DNA from: a virus
DNA: 23,052 nt
Virus record (IMG/VR): IMGVR_UViG_3300018418_001476
Coordinates: 1-23,052 of that record
Strand: one strand, 5' to 3'
Position numbers and translations under genes: made by a program. Below the pieces are notes generated by a model. It made no database searches, was not told the origin of the DNA, and saw nothing but the letters and a program-made list of their open reading frames with translations. The number at the start of each line of letters is the position of its first letter. The stretch's first letter is position 1. Positions 1 to 16,064 of this stretch are shown one piece after another.

Positions 1-284
1 CTCAGTAGTTGGCTGCGGGTCTGTAGTGCTGTCTCTACCGAGTTTGGATCTCCAATAACAACAATCTCTGTGCCTGTGGTTCCCTTATCAATAGTAATCT
101 TGGAGAAGCGGTGTTCTTTGCTTAGACCCTCTGTAAGCATTCCTTGCTCGTTTAGATTCTTCATCTGGTGTTCTTCTCTCACCATGACGACGTGTTCTGG
201 ATTGACGAACACCTCTCGTAGTGAATAACGGCGACCACTTGTTACTGCGCCTGTTCCACACACCTCTGTAAGTTTAACTAGCAT
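1..284 (-). CDS. Hypothetical phage protein, 3' end outside the window
   Basis: The reading frame opens at an ATG at 284 behind a strong AGGAGG Shine-Dalgarno and stays open for 94 codons to the window edge, so only the N-terminal part is visible. The start lies 11 bases inside the end of the gene before it. The product starts MLVKLTEV and has a region with YSLREVFVNPEHVV followed by a strand-rich stretch with TEIVVIGDP. It shows no membrane segment, signal peptide or catalytic motif. The alternation of short hydrophobic strands fits a small beta-rich protein. I do not recognise a function. Translational coupling to the gene starting at 504 suggests shared expression with groEL. Confidence 0.75.
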   Translation of the reverse strand, partial: MLVKLTEVCGTGAVTSGRRYSLREVFVNPEHVVMVREEHQMKNLNEQGMLTEGLSKEHRFSKITIDKGTTGTEIVVIGDPNSVETALQTRSQLL

Positions 285-504
285 TCTCCACCTCCTTGTT
301 GATTGGATAAATGTCTCTCATTTTTACCGACCAGACCTTGCCTTTGTAGTAGACCATTCCCCATGTTGGTTCTTTGGGGTTTCGATCCCAAAACAATGCC
401 TTGACTGGCTTGTCTGTCTTGACATACTCTTTTAGATATTCTTCTGCATCCTGAAGCAAGAAAGCATCTTGCGGGATGTGAACTAAGTCTCCTCTTATCA
501 TCAT
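274..504 (-). CDS. Small SH3-like (GDLV-type) hypothetical protein
   Basis: This 76-residue protein starts MMIRGDLVHIP. Longer readings beginning near 552 run through the end of groEL and lack a ribosome site. The ATG at 504 overlaps the groEL stop as ATGA, which favours coupled translation; the next ATG at 501 is equally possible. The GDLV motif near the N-terminus and the strand-rich remainder (VYYKGKVW, then DIYPI) suggest a small SH3-like or KOW-like beta barrel. That fold is common in phage accessory proteins and is also suggested for the MKVGD paralogs at 15810-17264. No catalytic residues are evident. The function is unknown. Confidence 0.65.
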   Translation of the reverse strand: MMIRGDLVHIPQDAFLLQDAEEYLKEYVKTDKPVKALFWDRNPKEPTWGMVYYKGKVWSVKMRDIYPINKEVENAS

Positions 505-2078
505 GATACCTGAATAATCCCATAGTTGGTCGTGATAAGTGTGCCGGCGCACGACGCTGCGTTCTTCAGTGCCGACTTGGTTACTCTCACTGGATCTAAG
601 ATACCACGCTCGTAGAGGTTTGTCAAGGTGCCGTTGCGGAAATCATAGCCCATGTCGTTTGACTGGTCTAGAACATGCGCCAGCAGGAGGTCTTCGCTCT
701 TGCCGCCGTTTCTACACATTTGACGGAAGGGCGCTTCACATGCCTTCTTTACGATCGCAATACCAATTGCCTGCTCTTCGTGGTCAGTTGTAACGACAAG
801 AGAGTTGCTTGCTCGTAGCAGGGCTGTGCCTCCACCACCGATTACGCCTTCTTCCTGTGCAGAGCGGACTGCTTCAAGGGCGTCCTCAATGCGGTGCTTG
901 CGTTCGGTCATCTCTACCTGTGTTGCACCACCAACATGAATCACAGCAACACCTGAAGATAGGCGAACAATGCGACCCTGAATGCGCTCGCACTCTGCAA
1001 AGTCGTCTGTGTTTGCAATCTCAGCCTTTAGACTCTCAATACGAGTCTCAACTGCTTCGTAGTCACAGTTACCGCCGACAAGAATGGTGCCGACCTTGGT
1101 GCTCTCAACAGACTTGGCCGTACCCAACTGATCAAGAGTTGCGGTCTGCAACTTCTGTCCTGACTCTCGGGTGATGAATGTTGCACCAGTCGAGATAGCA
1201 AGGTCAGACAAAAGATTGCGGCGTTCCTCACCATAGAATGGAGCCTTGATTCCTGCAATCTTTAGAGAGCCACGCATAGCGTTCATAATCATAGCAGCAA
1301 GTGCCTGACCCTCAATGTCTTCTGCAACAATGACGAGTGGGCGCGCTTCTCTTGCAACCAACTCAAGAATAGGAAGAATCTGCTCTACCTGTGTGATCTT
1401 GTAGTCTGTAACCATAACCAGCGGCTCTTCGTAGTGCATCACATTACGACGCTCGTCGTTGACAAATGCAGATGCACAGAAGCCAGCAGGGAAGCGGAAG
1501 CCCTCGGTCACGTCAATAGAAGTCTCCATAGAACGAGACTCTTCGATTGTGATAGAGCCGTCCTGACCTACCTTGTCCACAGCCATAGCAATGAGATCCC
1601 CAATAGTAGAATCGTTGTTGGCTGAAATAGTAGCGATGTGTTTGATGTCGTCAATGCTATTGACTGGTCGCGCCATCTCTGTAAGGTTGTTACAAATCTC
1701 TGATACTGTTGCATCTATTCCCCTCTGTAGTTCGATTGGAGAAACACCAGCAACAATGTGTCGCTGTGCTTCATTTAGGATTGCTCTCGCAAGGACGGTA
1801 GCAGTTGTTGTTCCGTCTCCAGCGCTTGTGTTTGTCTCGTTAGCAGCCTGACGGATAACCTGTGCGCCAGCGTTCTCAAACTCGTCGTCCAACTGAACGA
1901 ACTGGGCTACTGTTACTCCGTCCTTTGTTGCGAAAGCAGACTTATCGTGCTCTTTTAGAAGAACCGTTCTGCCCTTTGGTCCGAGAGTAGAAGAAACATA
2001 ATCAGCAAGTGTGTTTGCTCCGTTTAGAATCTTCTGTCGTAGTTCTTCGTTGTTTGCGAATACCATCTTGTTTGTCAT
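501..2078 (-). CDS. groEL: Phage-encoded chaperonin GroEL (60 kDa, group I)
   Basis: The 525-residue product aligns by eye over the full length of group I chaperonins. The ATP site is present: GPKGR near 33-37, TKDGV near 51-55 and GDGTTTA at 87-93. The catalytic aspartate equivalent to E. coli D398 is D399 in IEDALEA, followed by a GGGG turn at 414-417. The apical domain keeps the hydrophobic substrate groove (L235 and L238 in the ILPILEL segment), but the Tyr at E. coli 203 appears to be Ala. The protein ends NYGIIQVS and lacks the Gly-Gly-Met tail of bacterial GroEL. The start codon lies one base after the methyltransferase stop, with GAGGTTAA as ribosome site. A cognate GroES-like gene lies at 21448-21720. 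It probably folds phage structural or replication proteins. Confidence 0.96.
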   Translation of the reverse strand: MTNKMVFANNEELRQKILNGANTLADYVSSTLGPKGRTVLLKEHDKSAFATKDGVTVAQFVQLDDEFENAGAQVIRQAANETNTSAGDGTTTATVLARAILNEAQRHIVAGVSPIELQRGIDATVSEICNNLTEMARPVNSIDDIKHIATISANNDSTIGDLIAMAVDKVGQDGSITIEESRSMETSIDVTEGFRFPAGFCASAFVNDERRNVMHYEEPLVMVTDYKITQVEQILPILELVAREARPLVIVAEDIEGQALAAMIMNAMRGSLKIAGIKAPFYGEERRNLLSDLAISTGATFITRESGQKLQTATLDQLGTAKSVESTKVGTILVGGNCDYEAVETRIESLKAEIANTDDFAECERIQGRIVRLSSGVAVIHVGGATQVEMTERKHRIEDALEAVRSAQEEGVIGGGGTALLRASNSLVVTTDHEEQAIGIAIVKKACEAPFRQMCRNGGKSEDLLLAHVLDQSNDMGYDFRNGTLTNLYERGILDPVRVTKSALKNAASCAGTLITTNYGIIQVS

Positions 2079-2079
2079 T

Positions 2080-2841
2080 TTAACCTCGTGAAATAATGAA
2101 AACTTCGTTTGACTTCTTGCTCTTGTTCATTCCGTAAGCCCACTCTGCCGGAATAATCTCATAGTCAGAGTAGTGTTCGCGAATAAACTCACAATCATTA
2201 TAACATAATAACCAGTTCTGGCGATTTGTCAAGAGGGAATGTAAAAGTTTATGATCAAATCCCTCGTGCATGTCTCCGTTCTTTCCATATAACTTGCTCT
2301 TCTCCTCCAAAAAGTAAGGAGGGTCAAGATAAAGGAAACAATTTTTGTGCTGCTCTATGGACTCCTCAAAGCCCAGAAAGCCTACTTTTAGGTTGGGTGC
2401 GTCAAAGTTAGCCAGCCTTTTGATGCTGTTCTCGTTGAAGCGTCCGTCGGCTGCTTGCTGGGAAAAACCACCTGATAGTGTTGCGCCAGAGAACGAAGAA
2501 CGATTGATCGCAAAGTAAGCGGCAGCAAGTTCTACGCTCTTGCCCTGCGTTGGATCGTAGCCTCGCAAGAGCATTCGTAAAGCCTTGAATGTTTCTTTGT
2601 CTAATGGATGTAACTTCTTTACCTGCGCTACAAGATAATCTTTATCTGTCAGCAGACAATTCCAAAAGTTGTAGAGAGGATAGAACGCATCATAAGCATA
2701 GACGGCTCTATCTTTGGAGAGCACCAACTCTAACGACCCACCGCCCAAGAATGGGGAACAAATGTCCCCCTCTGGAATGTGGGGGAGTAGGTGCTTTATT
2801 GCGCGTGTTTTTCCACCGGGATAACGTAGTGGTGATTTCAA
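2080..2841 (-). CDS. D12-class DNA N6-adenine methyltransferase (Dam/DpnII type)
   Basis: The 253-residue protein opens with the D12-class N-terminus SPLRYPGGK. It has AdoMet motif I as FLGGGSLEL at 31-39 and the catalytic DPPY motif at 173-176, spaced as in Dam and M.DpnII. The length is close to the family norm. Translation begins at a TTG (2841) six bases after GGAGG; no ATG fits as well. It lies 24 bases downstream of the PD-(D/E)XK-like gene and one base upstream of groEL, so the three may be co-transcribed. A weak promoter-like pair (TTGTCA, 17 bases, TAAAAC at 2886-2858) precedes it. It probably methylates adenine in a short DNA site, either to protect phage DNA or as the partner of the adjacent nuclease candidate. 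The specificity cannot be read here. Confidence 0.93.
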   Translation of the reverse strand: MKSPLRYPGGKTRAIKHLLPHIPEGDICSPFLGGGSLELVLSKDRAVYAYDAFYPLYNFWNCLLTDKDYLVAQVKKLHPLDKETFKALRMLLRGYDPTQGKSVELAAAYFAINRSSFSGATLSGGFSQQAADGRFNENSIKRLANFDAPNLKVGFLGFEESIEQHKNCFLYLDPPYFLEEKSKLYGKNGDMHEGFDHKLLHSLLTNRQNWLLCYNDCEFIREHYSDYEIIPAEWAYGMNKSKKSNEVFIISRG

Positions 2842-2865
2842 GTTTCCTCCAAGTATTGTTTTATT

Positions 2866-3858
2866 TTACCACGGATCGCCTGACAATTTCAATGAAGATG
2901 CGAGTTTTTGATCAGCGTATTTAAATCTAATTTTCATAATTTTGGTGCCGTTTACGCTTTTTATTCCAATGCTATTGGTACCAACTGGTACAATCTCGAC
3001 ATCTTCTCCCATCAATGATTTGTATTTTTCATTGTTGATCGGATCCATAATCATTGCACCATATGACTTTCCGGGCATACCGTAACCCGTTGATTGTACA
3101 TAATACGGATATACTGTAGGAGATGCATCGAGCCAGTGAGTATACAAGTGTGCTCTTAACTCTGCCACCGGTAATTCCTTTAATCTTTCTAAGAGTATAT
3201 CTCTAAGTTGATTTACTATTTGATCGGCGTGTTTTTCTGCTGCTATTCTGATGTCTTTGTTTTCAGGTGCTCTTAGAAACTTTTTTCTTGTTGCGGCAGT
3301 TTGGCTGAGTTTATTGGTAACAATAAAATTTTCGACACTTTTATTAATTTTGTCGATATTCAAACCTAATTCTTCAACAAGCCACCCAACACCATGATTT
3401 TTAAATCCAATTTTTTGTTTTGTTTTTGTTGACTTTGCAGATATACCAAGATATTCTGTGCCGTTTATTTCGTACAAAATGTCAGAGGGGTTTCCTAATT
3501 CGGCTGCGGGTACAGCAGAAACCAAAACATTTGGTCGAGCAGTCCACCATACCTTTGTTATTTCACCCTCAAAGCCATTTTCTTGCCGCCAATCTTCAAT
3601 TTCTTCAAACATTTTAATTGCGCGCTGACTTTGTATTTCAAGTTCTGCTGATTTTTGTGCAGCAGTTAGTTGTGTTTTTCTCTGATTGATCGTTTGAAAA
3701 GCCTCTTCGTAGTTGATAAATTTTGATGTATCACCACCTAGAGAATCGGATGCTATAAGTGCCAATAGAATTTCATTTACGTCAGCCCCAAGTGTATTTC
3801 GAGATTCACCCAAAACTCCCTCCATAATTTCAAGAATTGTTAACAAACTATCAGACAT
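2866..3858 (-). CDS. Putative PD-(D/E)XK-like nuclease (restriction-enzyme candidate)
   Basis: I do not recognise a named family. The 330-residue protein has a helical N-terminus (1-90). It then has a strand-rich core with NPSD at 123-126, a hydrophobic strand, and GISAK ending at K142. D126 followed 16 residues later by Lys in a hydrophobic strand resembles the PD-(D/E)XK nuclease core, with Ser at the usual Asp/Glu position; E96 or E99 could supply the missing acid. The C-terminal third is strand-rich and could bind DNA. The gene is visibly AT-rich: hand count of 3361-3420 gives 19 G+C of 60, against 34 of 60 at 4081-4140 in clpP. That, plus its place beside an adenine methyltransferase, suggests acquisition as a module. 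The ribosome site is GAGGTTAAGTT before ATG. Gene call firm, function tentative. Confidence 0.55.
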   Translation of the reverse strand: MSDSLLTILEIMEGVLGESRNTLGADVNEILLALIASDSLGGDTSKFINYEEAFQTINQRKTQLTAAQKSAELEIQSQRAIKMFEEIEDWRQENGFEGEITKVWWTARPNVLVSAVPAAELGNPSDILYEINGTEYLGISAKSTKTKQKIGFKNHGVGWLVEELGLNIDKINKSVENFIVTNKLSQTAATRKKFLRAPENKDIRIAAEKHADQIVNQLRDILLERLKELPVAELRAHLYTHWLDASPTVYPYYVQSTGYGMPGKSYGAMIMDPINNEKYKSLMGEDVEIVPVGTNSIGIKSVNGTKIMKIRFKYADQKLASSLKLSGDPW

Positions 3859-3867
3859 AACTTAACC

Positions 3868-4521
3868 TCACATTATCTCGTCGGCAAGACCATACTTCAC
3901 TGCCTCTTCAGCAGAGAGATAGATGTTTACCTTTTCACTAAGTAGTTTCTCCAACTTCTTACGTGTGAACTTGGTGTTCTCAACCATAGCAGTGATGTAG
4001 TCGTCCTGTAGTTGCTGGATAGCCTCAAGTTCGTTTGTGAGGTTAGGTAGGATTCCAAAGTTACCTGCTGCAACGTTGTGAATCATTACGCGGCAGTTCT
4101 TGCCAATCTTGCGCTTGCCCTTGGTTCCCGCTGCGAGGAGTAGGGTGCCTGCGGACATAACCTTGCCAACACCGATGGTGTGGATTTCAGTTTCCTCCAT
4201 GACCTGCTGCATAACGTCATACATTGCAAACATGTCATCAGCAGAACCGCCATAGGTGTTGATGTAGAATTCAACAGGCTTACTTTCTTCCTTTTCCTTG
4301 TCTCTCAACTTGTTAGTCTCGTTGAGGTAAAGTAGAGCCTGTGTTAGTTCAGCAATCTTCTCGTCTTCAACGTTGGAGTAGAGTCCGATTACTCTTAGTT
4401 CCGGCTCTGGACCTCCACCTAGCATTTCGGCTAGATTCACGACTTTTGGTTCTGCTTGCGCTTCTGCGTTTGGAGAAGGTAGTAGCTTCTCAACAATCTT
4501 TCCAATAATCTGCTTAATCAT
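3868..4521 (-). CDS. clpP: ClpP-like serine protease (peptidase family S14)
   Basis: The 217-residue product matches ClpP: YINTYGGS near 87-93, the nucleophile block GKVMSAGTLLLAAG with S123, and the histidine block MIHN with H148. It closes with SAEEAVKYGLADEIM. The third triad residue appears changed: aligning the SAEEA block places N199 where bacterial ClpP has the catalytic Asp. The N-terminus (1-40) is longer than in mature ClpP and could be a propeptide. The start overlaps the upstream membrane-protein gene as ATGA. S14 proteases serve as prohead proteases in many phages, but no capsid or scaffold gene is recognisable alongside, so it could instead be a Clp subunit acting with a host or phage AAA+ partner. 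No ClpX-like gene is seen in the window. Confidence 0.9.
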   Translation of the reverse strand: MIKQIIGKIVEKLLPSPNAEAQAEPKVVNLAEMLGGGPEPELRVIGLYSNVEDEKIAELTQALLYLNETNKLRDKEKEESKPVEFYINTYGGSADDMFAMYDVMQQVMEETEIHTIGVGKVMSAGTLLLAAGTKGKRKIGKNCRVMIHNVAAGNFGILPNLTNELEAIQQLQDDYITAMVENTKFTRKKLEKLLSEKVNIYLSAEEAVKYGLADEIM

Positions 4522-4934
4522 GATTCTGCTCCTTTTCTAAATAGAATCGCTAGTTCTCTGTTCTTTTCTAAAAACCTCATGGCTGAACGCCAATCTGTAT
4601 AGGGTGCGATCTCCTTGAAGATTCCGCTGTGTGCGTTGACCAAGAACTTGATTGAATCTTCTTTGAAGTTATTCATAATCTTCTCTTGGTTCTCCTTCTC
4701 TAACTTGTAAACCTTATCGTCGGGTTCTACGCCCGACTTTCTAAGGGCGTCTAATTTAACTAGGTTCGCGTAACTGTAATTCTCTATGCACTTGGCTAAA
4801 ATAGATAACCCAATAACGCTGGAGGCTTTGACGATCAAGATCGTTGTTGAGCCTGACGCCCTGACGGAGAGCAAGAACCCAAATGTAAGTCCAAGCCCGA
4901 AGCATAAAATTCCTAATGCAATGTACCAAACCAT
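4518..4934 (-). CDS. Small membrane-anchored hypothetical protein
   Basis: This 138-residue protein starts MVWYIALGIL at 4934, because GGAGGGACTT sits just upstream; an ATG eight codons earlier would overlap that ribosome site and is less likely. Residues 3-25 are a continuous hydrophobic segment and a second weakly hydrophobic stretch follows (about 32-50). The remainder (60-138) is charged and helical with Lys/Glu-rich repeats. It looks like an N-terminally anchored inner-membrane protein with a cytoplasmic helical domain. Its stop overlaps the clpP start, so it could recruit or regulate the protease at the membrane, but that is inference. It is the first gene after the consensus promoter at 4982-5010. 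Confidence 0.75.
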   Translation of the reverse strand: MVWYIALGILCFGLGLTFGFLLSVRASGSTTILIVKASSVIGLSILAKCIENYSYANLVKLDALRKSGVEPDDKVYKLEKENQEKIMNNFKEDSIKFLVNAHSGIFKEIAPYTDWRSAMRFLEKNRELAILFRKGAES

Positions 4935-4946
4935 AAGTCCCTCCAT

Positions 4947-4983
4947 AAAAATAACCACCTAGGATGGTTGCCTAGATGGTTAT
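4947..4983 (-). terminator. Intrinsic terminator overlapping a promoter
   Basis: Read on the minus strand, the arm 4983-4971 (ATAACCATCTAGG) pairs with 4963-4951 over 13 base pairs with a single T-G wobble. The loop is seven bases and a five-T run follows (4951-4947). It would stop transcripts arriving from the acidic-protein gene at 5015. Its 5' arm begins inside the -10 hexamer of the promoter at 4982-5010, so RNAs initiated there lack about half of that arm. Confidence 0.75.
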
Positions 4984-5010
4984 TATAACGGCTCAGGAGA
5001 ATGCTGTCAA
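4982..5010 (-). promoter_or_regulatory. Consensus sigma70-type promoter for the clpP-groEL block
   Basis: On the minus strand TTGACA (5010-5005) and TATAAT (4987-4982) are separated by exactly 17 bases, a perfect match to the bacterial housekeeping consensus. Initiation would fall near 4977-4973, inside the left arm of the overlapping terminator hairpin. The next gene is the membrane protein starting at 4934. It is the strongest promoter match in the window and probably serves the genes from 4934 down to the left edge. Confidence 0.85.
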
Positions 5011-5014
5011 GTTA

Positions 5015-5650
5015 TTATTTTGAAGCCAAGCGACGGAAGATACGTTCGGCTAACTTGGTCGCCACATCTTCCTGCTTCTTCTCACGGAGTAGGCGGGCAG
5101 CCACGCGGCGAGCGACTTCTTGTACAATTTCTTCGTCACTTTCCATCATTGGTTCATCTGCCTCATCTTCGTCACCCATTTCCATTGGGGCTTCGGGAGC
5201 GGCGTCAGCCATTTCTAGATCACCACCTTCATCGGCGTCAACTTCACCCCCCATTTCCATCTCTTCTTCGCCACCAACCTCAACATCGGCGTCAAGACCA
5301 AGTAGGTCAGCAAGTTTGTCAACGATGTCAGCAAACTGCTCTTCTTTACCACCGTCTGCGTCCATGCCACCCATATCCATGTCCATGTCGCCTGCGGGTT
5401 CTTCAGCGCCCATATCCATTTCCATTTCTTCGCCGCCCTCGGGGGCTGGCATTTCTGGGGCGGGCGCTTCTTCGTCTTCAGCCTCCTGCATGTAATCGCG
5501 CATTCCGGGTTCGTCTTCTTCTTCCTCATCATCCCTCATACCGGGGACTGGTAGTTCGCCGCCCATGCCCATTTCTTGTAGGGGCTTGATGTTCGCCAAT
5601 TTCATAAACTGACGGATTTCTGATTCTGATAGTAGTGTCTTGCGAGCCAT
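5015..5650 (-). CDS. Very acidic Met/Asp-rich phage protein
   Basis: The 211-residue protein has three parts. A basic helical N-terminus (MARKTLLSESEIRQFMKLA, 1-19) comes first. A long low-complexity region (about 26-165) follows, rich in Asp, Glu, Met and Gly, with reiterated MDMDMGG and MEMD units. A charged amphipathic C-terminal helix (about 170-211) is rich in Arg and Lys. The ribosome site is AAGGAG. Acidic Met-rich internal regions with ordered ends occur in phage scaffolding or core proteins and in disordered hub proteins. No structural gene is adjacent, so that comparison is only suggestive. The DNA shows repeated CCAT-containing triplets from Met-Asp codons, which open long false frames on the plus strand. 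Transcription probably ends at the hairpin at 4983-4947. Confidence 0.85.
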   Translation of the reverse strand: MARKTLLSESEIRQFMKLANIKPLQEMGMGGELPVPGMRDDEEEEDEPGMRDYMQEAEDEEAPAPEMPAPEGGEEMEMDMGAEEPAGDMDMDMGGMDADGGKEEQFADIVDKLADLLGLDADVEVGGEEEMEMGGEVDADEGGDLEMADAAPEAPMEMGDEDEADEPMMESDEEIVQEVARRVAARLLREKKQEDVATKLAERIFRRLASK

Positions 5651-5664
5651 TGTTTTAATTCTCC

Positions 5665-5964
5665 TTAAAAACTCAATGTTAAATAGTCTACGTCACCAGA
5701 AGAAGCCAATAATTCTTCTCCGTCAGGCAAACGTTTCTGTAGTTTAATTAGTGCCTTACTTTCTATTTGTTTTATTCTCGCGAAAGAAAGTCCTTCGCGT
5801 TTTGCTATTTCCCTGAGAGTCATAGGTCCATTTTCATGGATCGAGATCAGGGAACAATTAAATTCGTCTTCATAGTCAATGTGAAATTTACATTTGTCTG
5901 CTGGGCAACATTCCCTGTCTTTAAGGCACTGCTGCGAGCATACTAGTAAGTCTTCTTTATTCAT
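5665..5964 (-). CDS. Sigma-70 region 4-like DNA-binding regulator with Cys cluster
   Basis: Residues 46-78 match the helix-turn-helix of sigma-70 region 4: GPMTLREIAKREGLS, then FARIKQIESKALIKL, the segment that reads the -35 element in sigma factors. No region 2 is present, and at 99 residues it cannot be a complete sigma factor. The N-terminal half has six cysteines (C9, C13, C19, C20, C25, C37) and a CPADKCKFH motif, possibly a small zinc site. The overall pattern, Cys-rich leader then a region-4-like helix pair, also occurs in small bacterial and phage transcription regulators. The start overlaps the previous stop as ATGA. It may redirect host RNA polymerase to phage promoters such as the TTGACA-17 set here, or appropriate host sigma contacts. 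Confidence 0.8.
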   Translation of the reverse strand: MNKEDLLVCSQQCLKDRECCPADKCKFHIDYEDEFNCSLISIHENGPMTLREIAKREGLSFARIKQIESKALIKLQKRLPDGEELLASSGDVDYLTLSF

Positions 5965-6302
5965 AGGTCTGGAAACTCCTGTGCGATTAGATCAAATAGG
6001 TTTTCTTTGTCGGCATCATCTAGGAGTCCCCAGTCTTCTAACTTTTCTTCTCCTTTCTTTCTCAGTTTGAGCGATTTGGTAAAGCGTTTGCGGCTTAGGA
6101 TCTTATGCTCTACAACATAATTGTCCAAGAAAGCCATTAGATTTGGGTCTTCCTCAATGACGCCATCGATCACGGCACGGAAGAACTGAGACACCCTTAT
6201 CTTGTTGTGTCTCAGCCTTATGATTAGTCGTGCGTGATCGTCGTCATAGACCCAAAAACGAATTGACTTTACGTCTTCTCCGTAGTTTGGATCGTCAGAC
6301 AT
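5961..6302 (-). CDS. Hypothetical protein, possible DNA-binding ribbon-helix-helix N-terminus
   Basis: I chose the ATG at 6302 (MSDDPN, 113 residues) because AGGAG lies at the right distance; a GTG at 6311 abuts that site. The N-terminal part has a strand (IRFWVYDDD) followed by two helices (RLIIRLRHN, then VSQFFRAVIDGVIEEDP). This resembles a ribbon-helix-helix fold but lacks a confident family match. The middle is basic (HKILSRKRFTKSLKLRKKGEEK) and the end acidic (FDLIAQEFPDL). It sits one base after the IMPDH-like stop and overlaps the sigma-like gene as ATGA, so the two putative regulators are co-translated. Function unknown. Confidence 0.7.
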   Translation of the reverse strand: MSDDPNYGEDVKSIRFWVYDDDHARLIIRLRHNKIRVSQFFRAVIDGVIEEDPNLMAFLDNYVVEHKILSRKRFTKSLKLRKKGEEKLEDWGLLDDADKENLFDLIAQEFPDL

Positions 6303-6303
6303 T

Positions 6304-7326
6304 TCACACACTCCTATTCAGAATGTGTGTTCTGCTTTCGCCAAGACCTGCGGAGGTCTGACGAACAAACTTGGCTCTATGTTGTAGTTCATGGATAGAG
6401 CGACAACCAGAGTAGGACAACCCAGAACGAATGCCTCGCTCAAGGTCTTCAAGAACGTTCTTTACCTTGCCTCGGTAGGGAACAGTAGCGGAGACACCTT
6501 CAAACGAAGAGTAGCGTCCTCTCCAATCCATTTGCGCCTCCTTGGACGCCATTCCTCGGTAGGTTTTAAATTTACGACCTGTTCCGTCTACAAGGGTTTC
6601 TCCGGGTGTCTCGCGCGTTCCAGATAGCAAGGAACCCAACATTACAGCGTCTGCGCCAGCAGCGAGAGCCTTTACAATGTCGCCAGAGTTGCGAATGCCT
6701 CCGTCGGCAATGATAGTAACGTCGCGGTCTGTGCGAGAACAATCAAAGATCGTCTGCAAGCCGGGGTGTCCGTGTCCTGTCTGGATTCTGGTAGAACAGA
6801 TAGAGCCACCACCAATGTTGCATCGAACGGAGTCTGCTCCCCAGTCTGCGAGGTCGTTTACGCCTTCGAGGGTTGCTACGTTGCCTGCCATGATGTGGAT
6901 TTGGGAACCCAATTCATAACGCAAATTTTTCAAGGCTTCTCGCATCTTGACGTGGTGGCCATGAGCAACGTCAACGCAAACAAATGTTGCGCCTGCCTTT
7001 ACGCCCTCTTCAGCACGATCAAGGTAATCGTTATCAATGCCAACAGCGAATCCGATGTTGGCTACGCCGCTACTTTTGGCAGCACGAATCATTTCGGTTT
7101 GCTGCCCGATTGTGTTGTAGCGGTGTAGAACACCAGCACTGCTTGCATGGTGCATTGCTTCTGCCATCATTACCTCGGAAATAGTATCCATCGGTGAAGC
7201 AAAGATGGGTAGTCCGAGTTCTAGTCCGTTCCCCAGATTAGAAGAGATATCCACTTCAGATCGAGAGCGGATATCGGAGTATTGTGGTAAGAGTAAAACG
7301 TCGTCATAGGTTAATGCTGTCTCCAT
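6304..7326 (-). CDS. IMP dehydrogenase/GMP reductase family enzyme, IMPDH-like, no CBS domains
   Basis: The 340-residue barrel has the family N-terminus ALTYDDVLLLPQYS, the catalytic cysteine loop GGGSICSTRIQTG with C177, and a phosphate-binding DGGIRNSGDIVKALAAGADAVMLG region. It also has the flap YRGMASKEA with a following RY pair (270-271). The C-terminus FVRQTSAGLGESRTHI matches bacterial GuaB better than GuaC, so oxidation of IMP to XMP is favoured over GMP reduction. Length fits a CBS-free enzyme; bacterial GuaB is about 490 residues with CBS domains. The ribosome site AGGAACTAACA lies in the end of the thioredoxin-like gene. Together with PurA (10429-11436), the phage encodes both branches that leave IMP. 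Confidence 0.9.
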   Translation of the reverse strand: METALTYDDVLLLPQYSDIRSRSEVDISSNLGNGLELGLPIFASPMDTISEVMMAEAMHHASSAGVLHRYNTIGQQTEMIRAAKSSGVANIGFAVGIDNDYLDRAEEGVKAGATFVCVDVAHGHHVKMREALKNLRYELGSQIHIMAGNVATLEGVNDLADWGADSVRCNIGGGSICSTRIQTGHGHPGLQTIFDCSRTDRDVTIIADGGIRNSGDIVKALAAGADAVMLGSLLSGTRETPGETLVDGTGRKFKTYRGMASKEAQMDWRGRYSSFEGVSATVPYRGKVKNVLEDLERGIRSGLSYSGCRSIHELQHRAKFVRQTSAGLGESRTHILNRSV

Positions 7327-7328
7327 TG

Positions 7329-7691
7329 TTAGTTCCTATTGTTGTCAATAAACTTGCGGATTCCGGTTGGGTGGAACCACATTTCTTTATGCGGTTGCGG
7401 CGGGTCTTCCATGAAACGCACACGAGGACGCATACCTCCGGTGCGGACATAACAAATGGAAGGAACTCCACTAAATCCCCACTTCTTTTCTAGACCCTCG
7501 CCGTCTTCCATGTTGAATGCATAGAAGTGAACATCACCATATTCATCGGAAATGTCTACGAACTGCGGCTTTAGAGCGTGACATAGGTGACAATTGGAGC
7601 CATAGAGTTTAATTACGACTTCGTGTTCACCTGTCACTCCGCCACCTAGGATTTGGTCTAGGTTTTTTCGATTGATTCTGCTAACTGCCAT
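7329..7691 (-). CDS. Thioredoxin-like protein
   Basis: The 120-residue protein has a strand ending VVIKLYGSNC then the redox motif CHLC (C34, C37), a helix, and the cis-proline region GVPSI (P77), in the order of the thioredoxin fold. It has an N-terminal extension of about 22 residues and lacks a signal peptide, so it should be cytoplasmic. It may supply electrons to the phage class II ribonucleotide reductase (21949 onward), which needs re-reduction of active-site cysteines, or act as a general disulfide reductase. The start overlaps the preceding DUF3310-like gene by 11 bases, with GAGAGGATAGAAA as ribosome site. Confidence 0.85.
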   Translation of the reverse strand: MAVSRINRKNLDQILGGGVTGEHEVVIKLYGSNCHLCHALKPQFVDISDEYGDVHFYAFNMEDGEGLEKKWGFSGVPSICYVRTGGMRPRVRFMEDPPQPHKEMWFHPTGIRKFIDNNRN

Positions 7692-7986
7692 TTTCTATCC
7701 TCTCGATTAGTCGGTCAAGATACCAACGGGCTTTCTTGAGGTCTTCAAGGGGATCTGCCTTGTGTTGGTGTCTCGCAACATACTTTACCACGTTACCGGC
7801 ATTGAAGTCAAGTTTCCAATCATCGATTGCGTCAATTACTTCAATCTTTCCGGTGTTGTAATGTGAAGGGTGATTGACGGCTTCGCGTCGTGCTAGACCT
7901 TCAAGTCCTGTTAGGTTGTCGGAGAACTCGTCATCATGAGAGCCCTGCGAATCAAATAGGTCAATCATCTGTGTTGGTGTGGGCAT
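7681..7986 (-). CDS. DUF3310 protein (phage nucleotide-kinase-like family)
   Basis: The C-terminal two thirds carries the DUF3310 signature: NHPSHYNTGKIEVIDAI, then FNAGNVVKYVARHQHK and DLKKARWYLDRLIE. This family is widespread in phages and sometimes named nucleotide kinase-like without good biochemical support. I chose the ATG at 7986 (101 residues, MPTPTQM) because AGGAGGTAATTG places it at the right distance; the TTG at 7989 is less likely. The first about 33 residues are acidic and may be flexible. It overlaps the preceding zinc-protein gene by 26 bases in another frame. Its location within a nucleotide-metabolism string supports a related role. Confidence 0.85.
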   Translation of the reverse strand: MPTPTQMIDLFDSQGSHDDEFSDNLTGLEGLARREAVNHPSHYNTGKIEVIDAIDDWKLDFNAGNVVKYVARHQHKADPLEDLKKARWYLDRLIERIENGS

Positions 7987-8218
7987 CAATTACCTCCTGT
8001 GCTTTATTGATGCAATCTGGGCAAAATAGGGTTACCTGCGTTGGATTTTCCCGTACAACTACTCGCCATGTGAGCGCATGTTCCTTGGATTTGGGGTCAA
8101 ATGCGGCGTTACATGCTGAGCAGTTGTCCGGTCTGTGGCTAAAGGTGGAAATTTTTTGGGCGAGTTTTTCGTTGCCTTTATTCTTCTTCTTGAGCCGTCG
8201 CCGTTGTGCCCTATTCAT
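7961..8218 (-). CDS. Small basic zinc-ribbon-like protein
   Basis: The 85-residue protein starts with a very basic segment (MNRAQRRRLKKKNKG) and then has two CxxC pairs (CSAC at 33-36 and CPDC at 66-69) about 30 residues apart, the usual layout of a zinc ribbon. The intervening strands (LTWRVVVREN, TQVTLFC) support that fold. A nucleic-acid-binding role is plausible given the basic leader, but no family is recognised. The start overlaps the methyltransferase stop as ATGA and the end overlaps the DUF3310 gene. Confidence 0.75.
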   Translation of the reverse strand: MNRAQRRRLKKKNKGNEKLAQKISTFSHRPDNCSACNAAFDPKSKEHALTWRVVVRENPTQVTLFCPDCINKAQEVIDAHTNTDD

Positions 8219-8694
8219 GGTCGCTCCATTCCTGTGATGCGGGGTCCGTCAAATGCGGACGGACGAAAAACCACCACTGCTGATGGGAATGGTGCGCTAT
8301 TCGTCTCATCACCAAATTTGATGCGTCCTCGAACAAAGCGAATCTCGTCTGCCTTCATCACGTACTCGTGCCAGTATGCAGTATCAGTACGGGCGGGGAT
8401 AAGCATAACAACCATTGTGTTTTCCTTAAGTCCCTCTTCGTATGACTTCTTGACCCAATCCTTTAGTCCGCGACCATAAGGTGGGTTGAGAAATACTCGA
8501 TGACCAGACCAATCCTGTGATAAGGAATCATCTGCCTGAGTGTAATACTTTGCGACCTTGTAGTTGTCGTCTGATGCAGCAGCGTCTAGAGTAAATGGAC
8601 CATAGATGCTGTTTAGTTTGTCAAAGATGGACTGCGGAGTAGCCCACTCGTTTGACTTTGAACTAAACATGACTTCTCGTGTATTCTTATCCAC
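8215..8694 (-). CDS. Phage DNA N6-adenine methyltransferase (phage N6A-Met type)
   Basis: The 159-residue product matches the short phage-type adenine methyltransferase: NEWATPQSIFDKLN near the N-terminus, FTLDAAAS as AdoMet-site region, and catalytic NPPYG at 70-74. The length fits this small family. Translation starts at a GTG (8694) with GGGAG six bases upstream, inside the end of the dUTPase gene. This is the second adenine methyltransferase in the window and belongs to a different family from the D12 enzyme at 2080-2841. It probably protects phage DNA from host nucleases; site specificity is unknown. Confidence 0.9.
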   Translation of the reverse strand: MDKNTREVMFSSKSNEWATPQSIFDKLNSIYGPFTLDAAASDDNYKVAKYYTQADDSLSQDWSGHRVFLNPPYGRGLKDWVKKSYEEGLKENTMVVMLIPARTDTAYWHEYVMKADEIRFVRGRIKFGDETNSAPFPSAVVVFRPSAFDGPRITGMERP

Positions 8695-9151
8695 CTGTAC
8701 TCCCTAGGGCTCCTGAGCCTCGTTCTGAAATAGTGATTGGGTGACGCTCGTCGTAAAGTATTCCGTCTACTTCCTCAAATGCACGGAAGTGGACTACTGG
8801 AATCATTACCAATTGAGCAATCTTGTCTCCGTGCTTGATGTCCTGACTACGATGCCCAACGTTGTGAAGATTGATGAAGACCTCTCCGTCGTAACCAGAG
8901 TCAACGACGTGGGCTCCAACAACAAGACCACGCTTGGCTGCTACACTTGAGCGGTTCATAACCTGTAGCATGTAGCCGTGTGGAATGCCAAACTTCAGCC
9001 CTGTTGGGATTAGGACAGAATGTCCGGGCAGAATAACCTTGAAGTCATCCTTTCCTCCGAGGAAAGCATAGATGTCAAGACCAGCATCCGAGGGGTTCGA
9101 GCGAGTTGGATGCTGCACGTCGCTGTAAAGGCGATGATACTCAATAATCAT
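8687..9151 (-). CDS. dut: Deoxyuridine 5'-triphosphate nucleotidohydrolase (dUTPase)
   Basis: All five trimeric dUTPase motifs are present in order in 154 residues: SDAGLDIYA, MNRSSVAAKRGLVVGA, VVDSGYDGEV, GDKIAQLVMIPV and RGSGALGSTG. It hydrolyses dUTP to dUMP and pyrophosphate, keeping uracil out of DNA and feeding ThyX (19865-20515). The ATG overlaps the upstream stop as ATGA, with GGAGAACCC before it. The complete C-terminal motif and standard length indicate an active enzyme. Confidence 0.95.
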   Translation of the reverse strand: MIIEYHRLYSDVQHPTRSNPSDAGLDIYAFLGGKDDFKVILPGHSVLIPTGLKFGIPHGYMLQVMNRSSVAAKRGLVVGAHVVDSGYDGEVFINLHNVGHRSQDIKHGDKIAQLVMIPVVHFRAFEEVDGILYDERHPITISERGSGALGSTGG

Positions 9152-9405
9152 GGGTTCTCCGTATCTTCGCCCGAAAGCGCCTTGTAGTTGTCGTAAACCT
9201 CATCAATGTCAATCTTACCCTTGAACAGACGGTAAGCCTTCACAGCCGCACGGATCTCGTCGGTGTTCAGCCAGCCCTGCTCACGATACTCGGTACGCAG
9301 TTCGCGCTTCTGCTCCTTGTAAGGCTCCATGGCCTCTTCAATTGCTACGAGTGAACGGATGTACTCCATGACGTAGCGCTTCTTCTCTTCGGTTGATGTA
9401 GACAT
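9148..9405 (-). CDS. Hypothetical coiled-coil protein, possibly GapR/DUF2312-like
   Basis: The 85-residue protein is highly charged and predicted helical. A central segment, AMEPYKEQKRELRTEYREQ, is followed by GWLNTDEIRAAVKAYRLFK. That order, charged coil then a turn and a helix with an alternating Ile/Ala/Val pattern, is reminiscent of the small DNA-binding DUF2312 (GapR) family, but the match is weak. It is the first gene after the promoter at 9429-9457 and heads the dut-IMPDH string. Ribosome site AAGGAGGACAGC. The GapR idea is inference only. Confidence 0.65.
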   Translation of the reverse strand: MSTSTEEKKRYVMEYIRSLVAIEEAMEPYKEQKRELRTEYREQGWLNTDEIRAAVKAYRLFKGKIDIDEVYDNYKALSGEDTENP

Positions 9406-9428
9406 GCTGTCCTCCTTGTTATGTTTGT

Positions 9429-9457
9429 AATGTAACTCGTCACGCTGCCGCTGTCAA
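9429..9457 (-). promoter_or_regulatory. Sigma70-like promoter ahead of the dut string
   Basis: Minus-strand TTGACA (9457-9452) and TACATT (9434-9429) are 17 bases apart. The -35 element lies in the last codons of the UV-endonuclease gene and helps encode its LTAAA terminus. The sequence from the -10 onward, GTTACATT then AAACATAAC, closely matches the promoter upstream of thyX. Confidence 0.72.
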
Positions 9458-10396
9458 GCGCTCAGCGTCGTTTTTTTTAAGCCCGAACAGGGCGAGTTCC
9501 TTCATCTTCGCCTCGATCATAACGTCGAGGTCGTAGCCGTAGTCGTCAACTGGTCCGTTGACGAAATCTGAGTGGGCATGTGGGCGAATCTTGGAGTCGC
9601 GCTTTTCTTCAGCACGGGACTCGGAGTAGTGGACTACCGGCTTGATGTCTCCCCACGTCGAGATTGCAATTTCCAAGGCTTCTTTTTCTGTAAGACCGCC
9701 AGTGCAAAAACCGTGATGATGATAATCAAAAACAATCGGAATACCAGTCCTGTTGTAAACTCCCTCATAGAGTTCGATAGTCGAGTAAAGTGATTCACGG
9801 TCGTCATTCTCCACGGTTAGACGAGACTTCACGCTATCTGGTAGTCTCTCAAAGTTACGAGCAAATGTATCGAGGGCTACGGGCTTGTTGCCGTAGGCTG
9901 CGCCGACATGAATGTTAATCTTTGCGTAGTGATCTCGGGGCAAGCCAAGCATGTCGAAGAACTCTCCGTGAATCTCCAAGTCTCTCAAGGTGTTCTGAAA
10001 CACCTTCTCATTTGGAGAAGCCAGCTTGTTGAATGGTCCGGGGTGAGAAGTAAGACGAATACCATGTTCCCGTGCATAGTTGCCTGCCTTCTCACAAGCC
10101 TCGAAGATTGCTTCATAGTCGGGCATGTCGTGGAGTTGGTACTCTGACGCCCAAGGAAAAACGTTGGAGGACAGACGGAAGAACTTGATCCCGTGCTCAA
10201 CATTCCATTCAAGGATCTTTTGGAGATCGAGTACGTTTAGGAGAGACAAGGAGGATGCATACTCGATCCCCTTCTCTTCAAAAGTTCTCTTGATCATGGA
10301 GCGATTAGTAGTGATTCTATCTTGCTTTTTACCACCATAATCCTGCGGGTTTGACAACTGCATGTTGATACATGCGTAGCCGTAGTTCTTGCTCAT
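9440..10396 (-). CDS. uvsE: UV-damage endonuclease (UvdE/UvsE family)
   Basis: The 318-residue protein is a UvdE-type TIM barrel. It starts YGYACINMQ, then has FRLSSNVFPWAS (73-84), LTSHPGPF with H118, INIHVGAAYGNK with H163, RLTVENDD with E196, VFDYHHHG with D224 and H226-H228, VVHYSE, and HAHSDFV at 273-279. These match the metal-binding order of bacterial UvsE, which nicks DNA 5' to UV photoproducts to start excision repair. The gene has its own promoter (10418-10446) and GGAGGACAG ribosome site. Its last codons include the -35 of the next promoter. Phage-encoded UV repair suits virions exposed to sunlight; that ecological reading is inference. Confidence 0.95.
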   Translation of the reverse strand: MSKNYGYACINMQLSNPQDYGGKKQDRITTNRSMIKRTFEEKGIEYASSLSLLNVLDLQKILEWNVEHGIKFFRLSSNVFPWASEYQLHDMPDYEAIFEACEKAGNYAREHGIRLTSHPGPFNKLASPNEKVFQNTLRDLEIHGEFFDMLGLPRDHYAKINIHVGAAYGNKPVALDTFARNFERLPDSVKSRLTVENDDRESLYSTIELYEGVYNRTGIPIVFDYHHHGFCTGGLTEKEALEIAISTWGDIKPVVHYSESRAEEKRDSKIRPHAHSDFVNGPVDDYGYDLDVMIEAKMKELALFGLKKNDAERLTAAA

Positions 10397-10417
10397 CTGT
10401 CCTCCAACGTTATAGAT

Positions 10418-10446
10418 AATGTAACCGGTCAGGCGGCTGCTGTCAA
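10418..10446 (-). promoter_or_regulatory. Sigma70-like promoter ahead of the UV endonuclease
   Basis: Minus-strand TTGACA (10446-10441), 17 bases, TACATT (10423-10418). The -35 overlaps the final codons of purA and encodes Leu-Thr of its LTAAA terminus. The downstream ATAAC resembles the element after the promoters at 9429 and 20536. Confidence 0.72.
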
Positions 10447-11436
10447 GGGATTTTCTTCGTGGATCGTGTGAGGGTTGTCAGAGAAATAGATCTTCTCGAT
10501 CCCTAGTCTCCGACTGAACTCGTCCGTGAGGTGCTTGCGGAAGTGACGCTCGCCGTGAAGGCGGCGCTCTGTGGTTCCCCAAGTGTCGATCTCGCGTAGA
10601 ACGTCCATCTTGTTGACTACAAGGCGGTTCACGCCATTCATGTCAATTGCCTGACGCACTTCCCTTGTGTTGATCCAGTTACACTGACGGACGCGACCTG
10701 TCGTAGCACCAAACTCAGCACCAACCTGCTGAATCTGATCAAACACAGCGTCGTCGGGCTGGAACTTACGCTTTCCAACATAAGTCTCGTAAGCCTTGAT
10801 AATGCCCCAGACATTGCGGATAGAGCGTGGGTTGATTCCGTTTTGGAGGGCTGCTGCTGTTCCTGTGTGTGAAGACGTTACATAAGGGTAGTCACCCCAG
10901 TCTGGGTCAAGCCAGAAGCCCTGTGCCCCCTCCATTAGGATTACAGAGTCTCCAGAAAGTTCCTCATAAATGTCGATAATGAAGGAATGAAGTTCGGGAA
11001 TCTCACCAGCACGTACCCCACGGCGAGCATACTTATCCCTGTAAGCGGGTCCATTTCCCGTCTTAGTGGTTCCAATTCGTTCATCTGTTCCGTCCTGCGC
11101 CTTGTGTAGCGAAGTGATAATGTGTGCGTTTTCCGCAATCTTTAGGTGATCTCGGACGTTGATGCCGTGAGACTCAAGATACTCTATTTCTTCAAAGAGT
11201 TTGACTGGATCGACCACGCAGCCGTTACCAATAACGGATGTAACACCAAAGAACACGCCAGCAGGAATGTGATGGGTAACCAACTTAACGCCGTCGTGAT
11301 AGATTGTGTGTCCAGCATTGCATCCCCCATTGAAGCGAACGCAGTGTGTGTATTCGCCACTCTTAAGTAGGTGGTGGGCGACCTTTCCTTTACCTTCGTC
11401 TCCGTGCTGAAGACCAATAACAATGTCGGTAATCAA
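10429..11436 (-). CDS. purA: Short adenylosuccinate synthetase (archaeal/phage-type PurA; PurZ-related)
   Basis: The best start is the TTG at 11436, eight bases after AGGAGG, giving 335 residues; the ATG at 11496 overlaps a promoter and adds 20 unrelated residues. The protein has the family N-terminus GLQHGDEGKGK with D13 aligned to catalytic Asp13 of E. coli PurA. It also has GCNAGHT (His41-type residue), TTKTGNGPAYRDKYARRG, EGAQGFWLDPDWGDYPYVTSS and GATTGRVRQCNW. At about 335 residues it matches the short archaeal and phage subfamily; bacterial PurA is about 430. The expected reaction is IMP plus aspartate plus GTP to adenylosuccinate. The related phage enzyme PurZ acts on dGMP to make 2-aminoadenine DNA and, as I recall, lacks this Asp, so PurA-like chemistry is favoured but not proven. 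Confidence 0.9.
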   Translation of the reverse strand: MITDIVIGLQHGDEGKGKVAHHLLKSGEYTHCVRFNGGCNAGHTIYHDGVKLVTHHIPAGVFFGVTSVIGNGCVVDPVKLFEEIEYLESHGINVRDHLKIAENAHIITSLHKAQDGTDERIGTTKTGNGPAYRDKYARRGVRAGEIPELHSFIIDIYEELSGDSVILMEGAQGFWLDPDWGDYPYVTSSHTGTAAALQNGINPRSIRNVWGIIKAYETYVGKRKFQPDDAVFDQIQQVGAEFGATTGRVRQCNWINTREVRQAIDMNGVNRLVVNKMDVLREIDTWGTTERRLHGERHFRKHLTDEFSRRLGIEKIYFSDNPHTIHEENPLTAAA

Positions 11437-11467
11437 GTTTCCTCCTTGTTTCTGAACTTGTACCAAT

Positions 11468-11496
11468 ACTTTAACATGGGAACGGAACTGATGCAA
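11468..11496 (-). promoter_or_regulatory. Weak sigma70-like promoter ahead of purA
   Basis: Minus-strand TTGCAT (11496-11491), 17 bases, TAAAGT (11473-11468) lies in the 116-base gap between the J-domain gene and the purA start at 11436. The -35 matches consensus at only the first three positions; spacing and position support it. Confidence 0.4.
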
Positions 11497-11552
11497 CTAA
11501 AAAGTGCCATCCATTCTCCGTGGCAGTTGAGCAGATGCTCCATTTAAGACCT

Positions 11553-12170
11553 CTAAATCTGGAAAAATTGCCTCAAAAAATTTTTGACGATCTTTGCTTT
11601 TTCATCTTCACTTTCGGCTTCAGAAAAAACATAATCATAAGTGCTCTTCTTAGATTTTATCTGTTTATCAAGCTCTTTAGTTCGTTCTTTCATCCAGCGA
11701 ATTTGTTCTATAATGTTGTCGGGAATTCGCACATCAAATTTTTCAGACATGTCAAGGAGTATAAAGTAGTCGCCGTCATCAAGCGCTCGCTTGGCTTCCT
11801 TGAACATAGATAATCTAACCTGTCGCTCTTCATCTGTCAAGCCAAAAGAGCGGTCTGGGTGAAGATTTAGCGCTAACTTCTTGAATAGTTCCTTGAAGGT
11901 CGAGTGTATTTCATCTTCTTCTTTTTGTTCCTGAATCTCAGAAACAATCAGCTTTTCTTTTCGAGGATCTCGGGGCGGGACAGGTAGCGCTCCTTTTTCT
12001 TGATTAAGTTTTTGTAAATCTATGTCGTTTTCTGAGCAGTAGTTTTCAAGAAACATTTGAAAATCAACCGCATGTGCTTCACATGTTTCTATAACAAGAT
12101 TTAGTTCTTCATGCTTGAACTTCGTTTCGTTTAGTGCTCTCTTCCACTTTAACAAATCTGTTACTCTCAA
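11553..12170 (-). CDS. Atypical J-domain (DnaJ-like) co-chaperone
   Basis: The 205-residue protein has an internal J-domain-like segment at about 90-145. The helix TFKELFKKLALNLHPDRS carries the diagnostic HPD at 104-106, followed by a third helix, FKEAKRALDDGDYFILLD. HPD is the DnaK-stimulating motif of J proteins. Here it lies mid-protein, not at the N-terminus, and no Gly/Phe or zinc-finger regions follow. The N-terminal 80 residues and the C-terminal part are charged and helical. The start is a TTG at 12170 whose ribosome site GGGAGG is the 3' arm of the upstream terminator hairpin. Base composition is low in G+C (hand count 18 of 60 at 11581-11640). With groEL and groES it suggests phage redirection of the host folding system. 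Confidence 0.75.
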   Translation of the reverse strand: MRVTDLLKWKRALNETKFKHEELNLVIETCEAHAVDFQMFLENYCSENDIDLQKLNQEKGALPVPPRDPRKEKLIVSEIQEQKEEDEIHSTFKELFKKLALNLHPDRSFGLTDEERQVRLSMFKEAKRALDDGDYFILLDMSEKFDVRIPDNIIEQIRWMKERTKELDKQIKSKKSTYDYVFSEAESEDEKAKIVKNFLRQFFQI

Positions 12171-12173
12171 AGC

Positions 12174-12203
12174 AAAAACCTCCCACCATAAATAGGTGGG
12201 AGG
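12174..12203 (-). terminator. Strong intrinsic terminator whose 3' arm carries a ribosome site
   Basis: Minus strand: CCTCCCACC (12203-12195), seven-base loop, perfect complement GGTGGGAGG (12187-12179), then TTTTT (12178-12174). It closes the dnaE and basic-peptide transcript. The 3' arm is also the only Shine-Dalgarno in front of the J-domain gene, whose TTG start is eight bases beyond. Confidence 0.88.
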
Positions 12204-12209
12204 CTGACA

Positions 12210-12353
12210 CTAACCTTTGCCCTGACCGCGATACTTCTTCTTGTAGCCCTTATTACCACCATGTGGTCCCGGTTGCTTGCGCTTTGTTAGAGCACTCTTG
12301 CCAATACTGGTCTTTTTCTTGGGTGCTTTGTTGTGTGTCTTCTTCTGTGCCAT
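12210..12353 (-). CDS. 47-residue lysine-rich basic peptide
   Basis: A short frame runs from ATG at 12353 with a good AAGGAGTAAAGC ribosome site to TAG just before the terminator. The product starts MAQKKTHNKAPKKKTS and ends KKKYRGQGKG. About a third of its residues are Lys or Arg, with only polar, Gly and His neighbours and no acidic residue. This resembles disordered nucleic-acid-binding tails of ribosomal or nucleoid proteins, though no family is recognised. It follows dnaE by 16 bases and would be in the same transcript, so a role near replicating DNA is possible but unproven. Confidence 0.72.
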   Translation of the reverse strand: MAQKKTHNKAPKKKTSIGKSALTKRKQPGPHGGNKGYKKKYRGQGKG

Positions 12354-12369
12354 GCTTTACTCCTTATTG

Positions 12370-15810: not shown

Positions 15811-15989
15811 TATTTTGCCTCCGATAGTAGTTTGAGAATCCGATAATTGTGTTTACTAATCACGCCTTTTCTTGTGGGAGTGTCGGTGGTTAGCCACCTG
15901 ATGGTGTTAGTCCCGAACTCATCAAAAGAGAGAACTACACCAAAGCACCAAGGGTAGTCCCTGTGTCTTACCAGATCACCGACTCTCAT
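15810..15989 (-). CDS. MKVGD-type small protein, paralog D, coupled to dnaE
   Basis: A 59-residue frame opens at ATG 15989 after AGGAGGG and ends at TAA overlapping the dnaE ATG. It starts MRVGDLVRHRDYPWCFGVV and ends YRILKLLSEAK. It is a paralog of the products at 16594, 16755 and 17070: the same MxVGDLV start, a Trp or hydrophobic centre, and an LLSE end. The pattern suggests a small SH3/KOW-like beta barrel. The codons for LLSEA contain GGAGG, which is the ribosome site for dnaE, so polymerase synthesis probably depends on translation of this gene. It has its own promoter at 16012-16040. Confidence 0.8.
   Translation of the reverse strand: MRVGDLVRHRDYPWCFGVVLSFDEFGTNTIRWLTTDTPTRKGVISKHNYRILKLLSEAK
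15816..15830 (-). repeat. 15-base repeat encoding LLSEA and a Shine-Dalgarno (copy 1 of 3)
   Basis: Minus-strand CTACTATCGGAGGCA, identical at 16758-16772 and 17073-17087. Each copy ends a MKVGD-type gene and supplies GGAGG for the next gene; here the next gene is dnaE. Confidence 0.9.
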
Positions 15990-16011
15990 TACAATCCCTC
16001 CTTACCCCTCT

Positions 16012-16040: not shown

Positions 16041-16064
16041 GGGCAGAGCCGAAGAATAAATAGT

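What the first reader, a model, noticed from the sequence alone, without database searches (positions are those of the whole stretch)
4947..5010. Promoter and terminator interleaved so that read-through is stopped but new transcripts may escape
Seen: a perfect TTGACA-17-TATAAT promoter whose -10 shares two bases with the left arm of a 13-pair hairpin followed by five T. Initiation would fall about 4977-4973, inside that arm, so new RNAs keep only about seven of its bases, while RNAs from the acidic gene form the full terminator. Inference: one 64-base element both ends the upstream transcript and starts the clpP-groEL block without self-termination.
Basis: partly seen in the sequence, partly recalled or inferred. 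Interest (0 to 1): 0.78.

Follow-up and report, generated by a model that had tools for sequence, protein, structure and literature searches.

The report
Phage promoter nested inside a terminator
In a large group of uncultured, mostly marine phages, one roughly 65-base stretch is both the stop signal for one set of genes and the start signal for the next; the RNA start point lies inside the stop hairpin, so RNA arriving from upstream should be halted while RNA starting there mostly should not.

Summary
On the minus strand, a 12/12 TTGACA-17-TATAAT promoter (5010-4982) is followed by a 14-pair stem (4984-4971/4963-4950) whose left arm begins inside the -10 box, then a run of five T and the next gene's Shine-Dalgarno. 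Shuffles never fold as well. Comparison shows it is a conserved device. In 154 IMG/VR loci bearing the neighbouring clpP-like gene, 149 (80 distinct elements) keep promoter plus U-tract hairpin, right after the stop codon of an acidic-protein gene. Stem sequences diverge but covary. Even a -10 base change (TATAAT to TATATT) is matched by its stem partner. The predicted +1 lies in the left arm in 80/80, so the full hairpin can form only in read-in RNA. Median stem energy is -16.25 kcal/mol for read-in RNA and -0.8 for RNA starting at +1. Caveats: this window's own new RNA can still form a 7-pair hairpin (-5.5) beside the T run, and a few GC-rich relatives keep most of the stem, so "no self-termination" is likely but not universal. 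Terminator-promoter overlaps and T4 gene e-type promoter-in-hairpin logic are known; this is a new, deeply conserved phage variant.

The parts
5015..5650 (-). upstream gene: acidic 211-aa protein, conserved C-terminus KLAERIFRRLASK; its stop codon lies 4 nt before the -35
   Evidence: in relatives D+E 28-40% over the last 200 aa, stop 0-8 nt before the -35 in 79/80 and overlapping it in one
5005..5010 (-). -35 box TTGACA
   Evidence: 60 of 80 distinct elements 12/12 and 20 of 80 11/12; spacing 17 in 79/80
4988..5004 (-). 17-nt spacer GCATTCTCCTGAGCCGT; TCTCCTGAGnCG near-invariant in the nearest clade, shares TGA...GT offsets with other promoters of this phage
4982..4987 (-). -10 box TATAAT; its last three bases are the base of the terminator's left arm
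   Evidence: -10 position 5 covaries with its stem partner in L046 and L111
4971..4984 (-). left arm of the terminator stem AATAACCATCTAGG; predicted +1 (about 4975) lies inside it
4964..4970 (-). loop CAACCAT (repeats the left-arm motif AACCAT)
4950..4963 (-). right arm of the terminator stem CCTAGGTGGTTATT
4947..4951 (-). U tract TTTTT (first two T also pair in the stem); predicted 3' end of read-in RNA
4953..4969 (-). alternative 7-pair hairpin AACCATC-CTA-GGTGGTT available to RNA that starts at +1
   Evidence: -5.5 kcal/mol
4939..4944 (-). Shine-Dalgarno GGAGGG directly after the U tract
4518..4934 (-). first gene of the downstream block, 138 aa, unknown function, hydrophobic N-terminus
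   Evidence: no family above cut-off
3868..4521 (-). ClpP-like serine protease, second gene of the downstream block
   Evidence: Pfam CLP_protease 1.3e-34; PHROG head maturation protease

Best explanation
It is a compact transcription boundary in which an intrinsic terminator and a sigma70-type promoter are nested on the same strand. RNA polymerase coming from the acidic-protein operon copies the -10 region as RNA, folds it with the leader into a 10-16-pair hairpin and is released at the U tract. RNA polymerase that initiates at the promoter starts within the left arm, so its RNA lacks a large part (median 64%) of that arm. It should therefore pass the U tract mostly unhindered and make the clpP-groEL mRNA with a leader of about 40 nt and a free Shine-Dalgarno. 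Shown: the sequence anatomy, its conservation, its covariation and its confined register. Inferred: that termination and initiation happen, and how often new RNAs escape.
For: Anatomy and fold. 149 of 154 clpP-bearing loci carry it, 80 distinct elements, stems of 10-16 pairs, register -5 to +4 nt from the -10 end. Covariation: 97.1% of cells paired and 6 pairs with double changes, 0/500 shuffles; 99.2% over 10 pairs in a wider set; sliding the partner destroys it. The -10 change TATAAT to TATATT is matched by ATT to AAT in L046 and L111, placed as separate events by parsimony on a quick ClpP tree. 66 G.U pairs against 0 A.C mismatches, as expected for RNA of this strand. +1 inside the left arm in 80/80, hairpin register changing at least 17 times on the tree without leaving that range. 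Median -16.25 to -0.8 kcal/mol on truncation. Identical promoter strings elsewhere in unrelated phages have no such hairpin: of 75 distinct hits, 31 with hairpin and clpP, 5 more that look like the same locus near contig ends, 37 with neither. Always in the same gap between acidic gene and next gene, 49-86 nt.
Against: No RNA data. The window's new RNA keeps a 7-pair hairpin (-5.5 kcal/mol) at the U tract, -8.4 to -8.9 in L049/L051/L063. GC-rich elements (L085, L104, L106) retain -10.7 to -14.6 kcal/mol, so self-attenuation is predicted there. Some elements have weak U tracts (TTATTTCATT), and L110 has the terminator without a recognisable overlapping promoter.
Confidence: 0.82

Rival explanations
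1. Terminator plus self-attenuated promoter: the hairpin ends the upstream operon and also partly terminates the new transcripts through the residual or alternative short hairpin, so the downstream genes are throttled, as at E. coli frd-ampC.
For: Alternative hairpin 4969-4953 abuts the U tract; -8.4 to -8.9 kcal/mol in L049/L051/L063 and near-complete stems in L085, L104, L106. ampC precedent (PMC6045580).
Against: The loop copy of AACCAT does not follow when the arms change (L047, L068) and is absent in distant clades; 72/80 truncated RNAs keep no hairpin as good as -6 kcal/mol.
Confidence: 0.2
2. The dyad is a DNA operator for a dimeric repressor covering -10 and +1, and the T run is incidental.
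For: Half-site AACCAY/RTGGTT is common in the group and the dyad covers the start site.
Against: Half-site spacing varies from 7 to 22 nt and 15/80 lack the half-sites; G.U pairs are tolerated but A.C mismatches are not seen; the T run lies on one side only and is kept in nearly all.
Confidence: 0.04
3. Termination and re-initiation are coupled: polymerase released at the U tract stays on the DNA and diffuses back a few tens of bases to the nested promoter, so upstream transcription feeds the downstream block. (An addition to the best explanation rather than an exclusive rival.)
For: Terminator and promoter are as close as they can be. Single-molecule work shows post-termination RNAP diffuses and reinitiates at nearby promoters, with terminator-promoter distance suggested to matter (PMC6978380, PMC6978322).
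Against: Nothing here tests it; compactness alone explains the closeness.
Confidence: 0.15
4. Chance closeness of a promoter and an unrelated hairpin.
For: The other good promoters scanned in these contigs have no hairpin at this place.
Against: Conserved in 149/154 relatives with covariation.
Confidence: 0.005

Closest known systems
Inter-operon terminator-promoter overlap (tufB-secE and neighbours, Salmonella; Brandis, Cao and Hughes 2019, as described in PMC7055797)
   Same: Terminator of one operon overlaps the promoter of the next, conserved over long times, proposed to hold operons together.
   Different: Chromosomal ribosomal/RNAP operons; here a phage. The original paper was not readable here, so exact geometry could not be compared. 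Here -10 and left arm share bases and +1 lies inside the stem.
E. coli frd-ampC overlap (Grundstrom and Jaurin 1982, cited in PMC6045580)
   Same: Promoter sits at the end of the upstream operon; the upstream terminator lies between it and the downstream gene.
   Different: The ampC hairpin begins about 25 nt after the -10, so ampC RNA contains it and is attenuated; here +1 is inside the stem.
T4 gene e / soc / 49 / I-TevI early-late control (PMC3014915)
   Same: A promoter (late promoter, for gene e and I-TevI) lies in the 5' strand of an RNA hairpin: long RNAs from upstream form it, RNAs from the internal promoter cannot.
   Different: In T4 the hairpin hides the ribosome site (translation); here it ends in a U tract (termination).

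Membership tests
intrinsic (Rho-independent) terminator | stable GC-containing hairpin directly followed by a U tract on the transcribed strand | tested here: met
   window stem 14 pairs, -17.5 kcal/mol, then TTTTT
intrinsic (Rho-independent) terminator | RNA 3' ends at the U tract | not testable with these tools
   no RNA data held
sigma70-type promoter | TTGACA and TATAAT hexamers at 16-18 nt | tested here: met
   12/12 with 17 nt; 80/80 elements 11-12 of 12
sigma70-type promoter | RNA 5' end about 6-8 nt after the -10 | not testable with these tools
   predicted only
terminator-promoter overlap (tufB-secE type) | terminator of one operon and promoter of the next share sequence | tested here: met
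   left arm and -10 share 3 bases; covariation includes a shared base; that both parts work is inferred
ampC-type attenuator | promoter-initiated RNA contains the whole terminator hairpin | tested here: not met
   +1 inside the left arm in 80/80; nearly met in GC-rich variants such as L085
T4 gene e-type translational switch | hairpin formed only by read-in RNA sequesters the Shine-Dalgarno | tested here: not met
   the hairpin ends before the GGAGGG; the promoter-in-5'-strand logic is the same, the output is not

The most novel reading that the evidence does not exclude
A conserved phage hand-over element: the nested geometry is selected so that each polymerase terminated at the end of the acidic-protein operon is positioned to restart at the same spot, tying clpP-groEL expression to upstream transcription while resetting the transcript.
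Probability: 0.15. Interest if true: 0.8.

Novelty: new variant of a known kind. Interest (0 to 1): 0.6.

Why it matters
It gives about 80 natural variants of one terminator-promoter overlap, with covariation reaching into the -10 box itself, in an abundant uncultured phage group. That makes it a good system for asking why operons are joined by overlaps (compactness, escape from self-termination, or re-use of terminated polymerase), and it is a candidate compact boundary part for synthetic constructs.

Tried and rejected
DNA search of annotated phages with 4000-6500: no match. tblastn of the acidic protein: no match. clpP query in named bacterial and archaeal genomes: no relative, so no host found. 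Rfam: no hit. Idea that most phage promoters here have an inverted repeat around the -10: not clearly significant overall (mean 10.6 against 10.2 +/- 0.2 for shuffled partners), though one locus has a striking one. Idea that the loop AACCAT is a selected alternative arm: it does not follow arm changes in L047 and L068, so not supported. Spacer TCTCC pairing with the Shine-Dalgarno in read-in RNA: plausible in the nearest clade (partner changes with it in L066), no anti-SD match seen in the distant clades looked at; left open. E. coli tufB-secE region was fetched for geometry but could not be matched to the published overlap without the paper.

Full report
What is there. The finding lies on the minus strand. 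The acidic 211-aa gene stops at 5015; four bases later comes TTGACA (5010-5005), 17 nt, TATAAT (4987-4982), then AATAACCATCTAGG-CAACCAT-CCTAGGTGGTTATT with the left arm starting at the fourth base of the -10 box, TTTTT, GGAGGG and an ATG at 4934. It is the only 12/12 promoter in window 1-20000. The RNA folds as stated with a z-score of -4.7.

Whose genome. The window is a 23-kb virus record with no DNA match for 4000-6500 in annotated phages. It carries GroEL, ClpP, a DnaE-type polymerase, an adenylosuccinate-synthetase/PurZ-like gene and IMPDH. Near-identical contigs of up to 57 kb exist, and a 191-kb relative. No named bacterial genome held a clpP relative.

Conservation. A search with the downstream 138-aa protein found relatives down to 50% identity with the same arrangement and a changed stem. 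ClpP searches gave 74 and then 80 loci, partly the same contigs (at least 576 relatives exist). Of 154 loci, 149 carry a promoter of 11-12/12, with 17-nt spacing in 79 of 80 distinct elements, followed by a U-tract hairpin of 10-16 pairs starting -5 to +4 nt from the end of the -10 (filter allowed -6 to +8). Of the five left, L183, L184 and L213 have the hairpin with a short T run, L090 has a decayed stem, and L110 has a terminator without this promoter. The upstream gene always encodes an acidic protein (D+E 28-40%), its stop lies 0-8 nt before the -35 in 79 of 80 (it overlaps it in one), and the whole gap is 49-86 nt.

RNA, not DNA. In a sequence-only alignment of 25 nearest variants, 97.1% of cells pair, six pairs show double changes (0/500 shuffles), and sliding the partner by 1-3 columns drops pairing to 27-52%. 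In a wider set of 26, 99.2% over ten pairs. Most telling, when the -10 reads TATATT (L046, L111) the right arm reads AAT in place of ATT; parsimony on a quick ClpP tree puts these as separate events. G.U pairs number 66, single A.C mismatches none, which points to this strand's RNA, though the folding method favours G.U. Half-site spacing of 7-22 nt speaks against a dimer operator.

Register. With a 6-nt discriminator, +1 falls in the left arm in all 80 elements; a median of 64% of the left-arm pairs lie upstream of +1 (range 17-92%). The register changes at least 17 times on the tree and stays in this range. A hairpin whose 5' half lies upstream of +1 cannot form in full in the promoter's own RNA, so it must serve RNA from upstream: a terminator. 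That is the core inference.

Escape. Full stems have a median of -16.25 kcal/mol and RNAs starting at +1 a median of -0.8 for any hairpin at the U tract; 8 of 80 keep -6 or better. The exceptions matter: the window's loop repeats AACCAT, so its new RNA can form a 7-pair hairpin of -5.5; L049, L051 and L063 reach -8.4 to -8.9; GC-rich L085, L104 and L106 keep -10.7 to -14.6. 'No self-termination' is therefore likely for most, uncertain for this clade, doubtful for the GC-rich subgroup.

Specificity. In 13 contigs from this group, scanned for promoters of 10/12 or better and strong terminators, twelve show exactly one overlap, always this one, and the exception is G020, whose clpP locus is L110. 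The same string TTGACA-17-TATAATAACCAC, or its two-base-shifted form, also occurs in unrelated phages: of 75 distinct hits, 31 have hairpin and clpP, 5 more look like the same locus near contig ends, one has clpP with a short-tailed hairpin, one has an unrelated hairpin without a proper T run (L276), and 37 have neither, two of these being cut off by the contig end. So the hairpin goes with this locus, not with the promoter string.

Known relatives of the idea. Terminator-promoter overlaps between operons are known and functionally important in Salmonella (PMC7055797). At frd-ampC the terminator is downstream of the promoter and attenuates it (PMC6045580; geometry). T4 gene e has a late promoter in the 5' strand of an inhibitory hairpin so that only internal RNAs are translated (PMC3014915). 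The present element joins the first and third ideas at the level of termination. RNAP recycling after termination (PMC6978380, PMC6978322) makes a hand-over function thinkable, untested. Literature was limited to open-licence papers, so an earlier report of the same phage element cannot be excluded.

Noticed in passing
L022-L024 (57-kb contig) position 55134 minus strand; also 191-kb contig 183915 plus, 70-kb contig 43611 minus: Another promoter has its -10 in the loop of an inverted repeat that pairs the spacer with the Shine-Dalgarno (CCTCCACCC ... GGGTGGAGG; CCTCCAGCCC ... GGGCTGGAGG in a relative), in front of a gene starting MKRVLVIDALNMF. It looks like a T4 gene e-type switch: only RNAs starting at the promoter would have a free ribosome site.
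   Followed up: partly
window 9429-9457 and 10418-10446 minus: Phage promoters of the form TTGACAGC...TGA....GTTACATT overlap gene ends: the TGA is the stop codon and the -35 region encodes the tail, so two unrelated proteins both end in LTAAA.
   Followed up: partly
57-kb contig (L022) 12435 and 11766 minus; contig of L028/L029 23228 plus: Promoters in front of tRNA-like sequence have short inverted repeats flanking the -10 (TCCCTCT..AGAGGGA, CCTCTC..GAGAGG, CCCCTC..GAGGGG).
   Followed up: partly
window 5665-5964 minus: 99-aa protein with a sigma70 region 4 match (Pfam 3.3e-7) just upstream of the acidic gene; could bear on promoter choice.
   Followed up: partly
window 15810-17282 minus: Four small genes encode similar proteins (MxVGDxV ... 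LLSEA), seemingly a local family of paralogues.
   Followed up: no
window 10429-11451 and 6304-7326 minus: PurZ-like adenylosuccinate synthetase and IMPDH/GMP reductase-like genes; possible modified-purine metabolism, which would affect promoter melting if adenine is replaced.
   Followed up: no
window 4988-5004 minus and L066: In the nearest clade the spacer TCTCC is complementary to the downstream Shine-Dalgarno GGAGA; in L066 both sides differ together (CCTCA / TGAGG). A second, translational block on read-in RNA is possible.
   Followed up: partly
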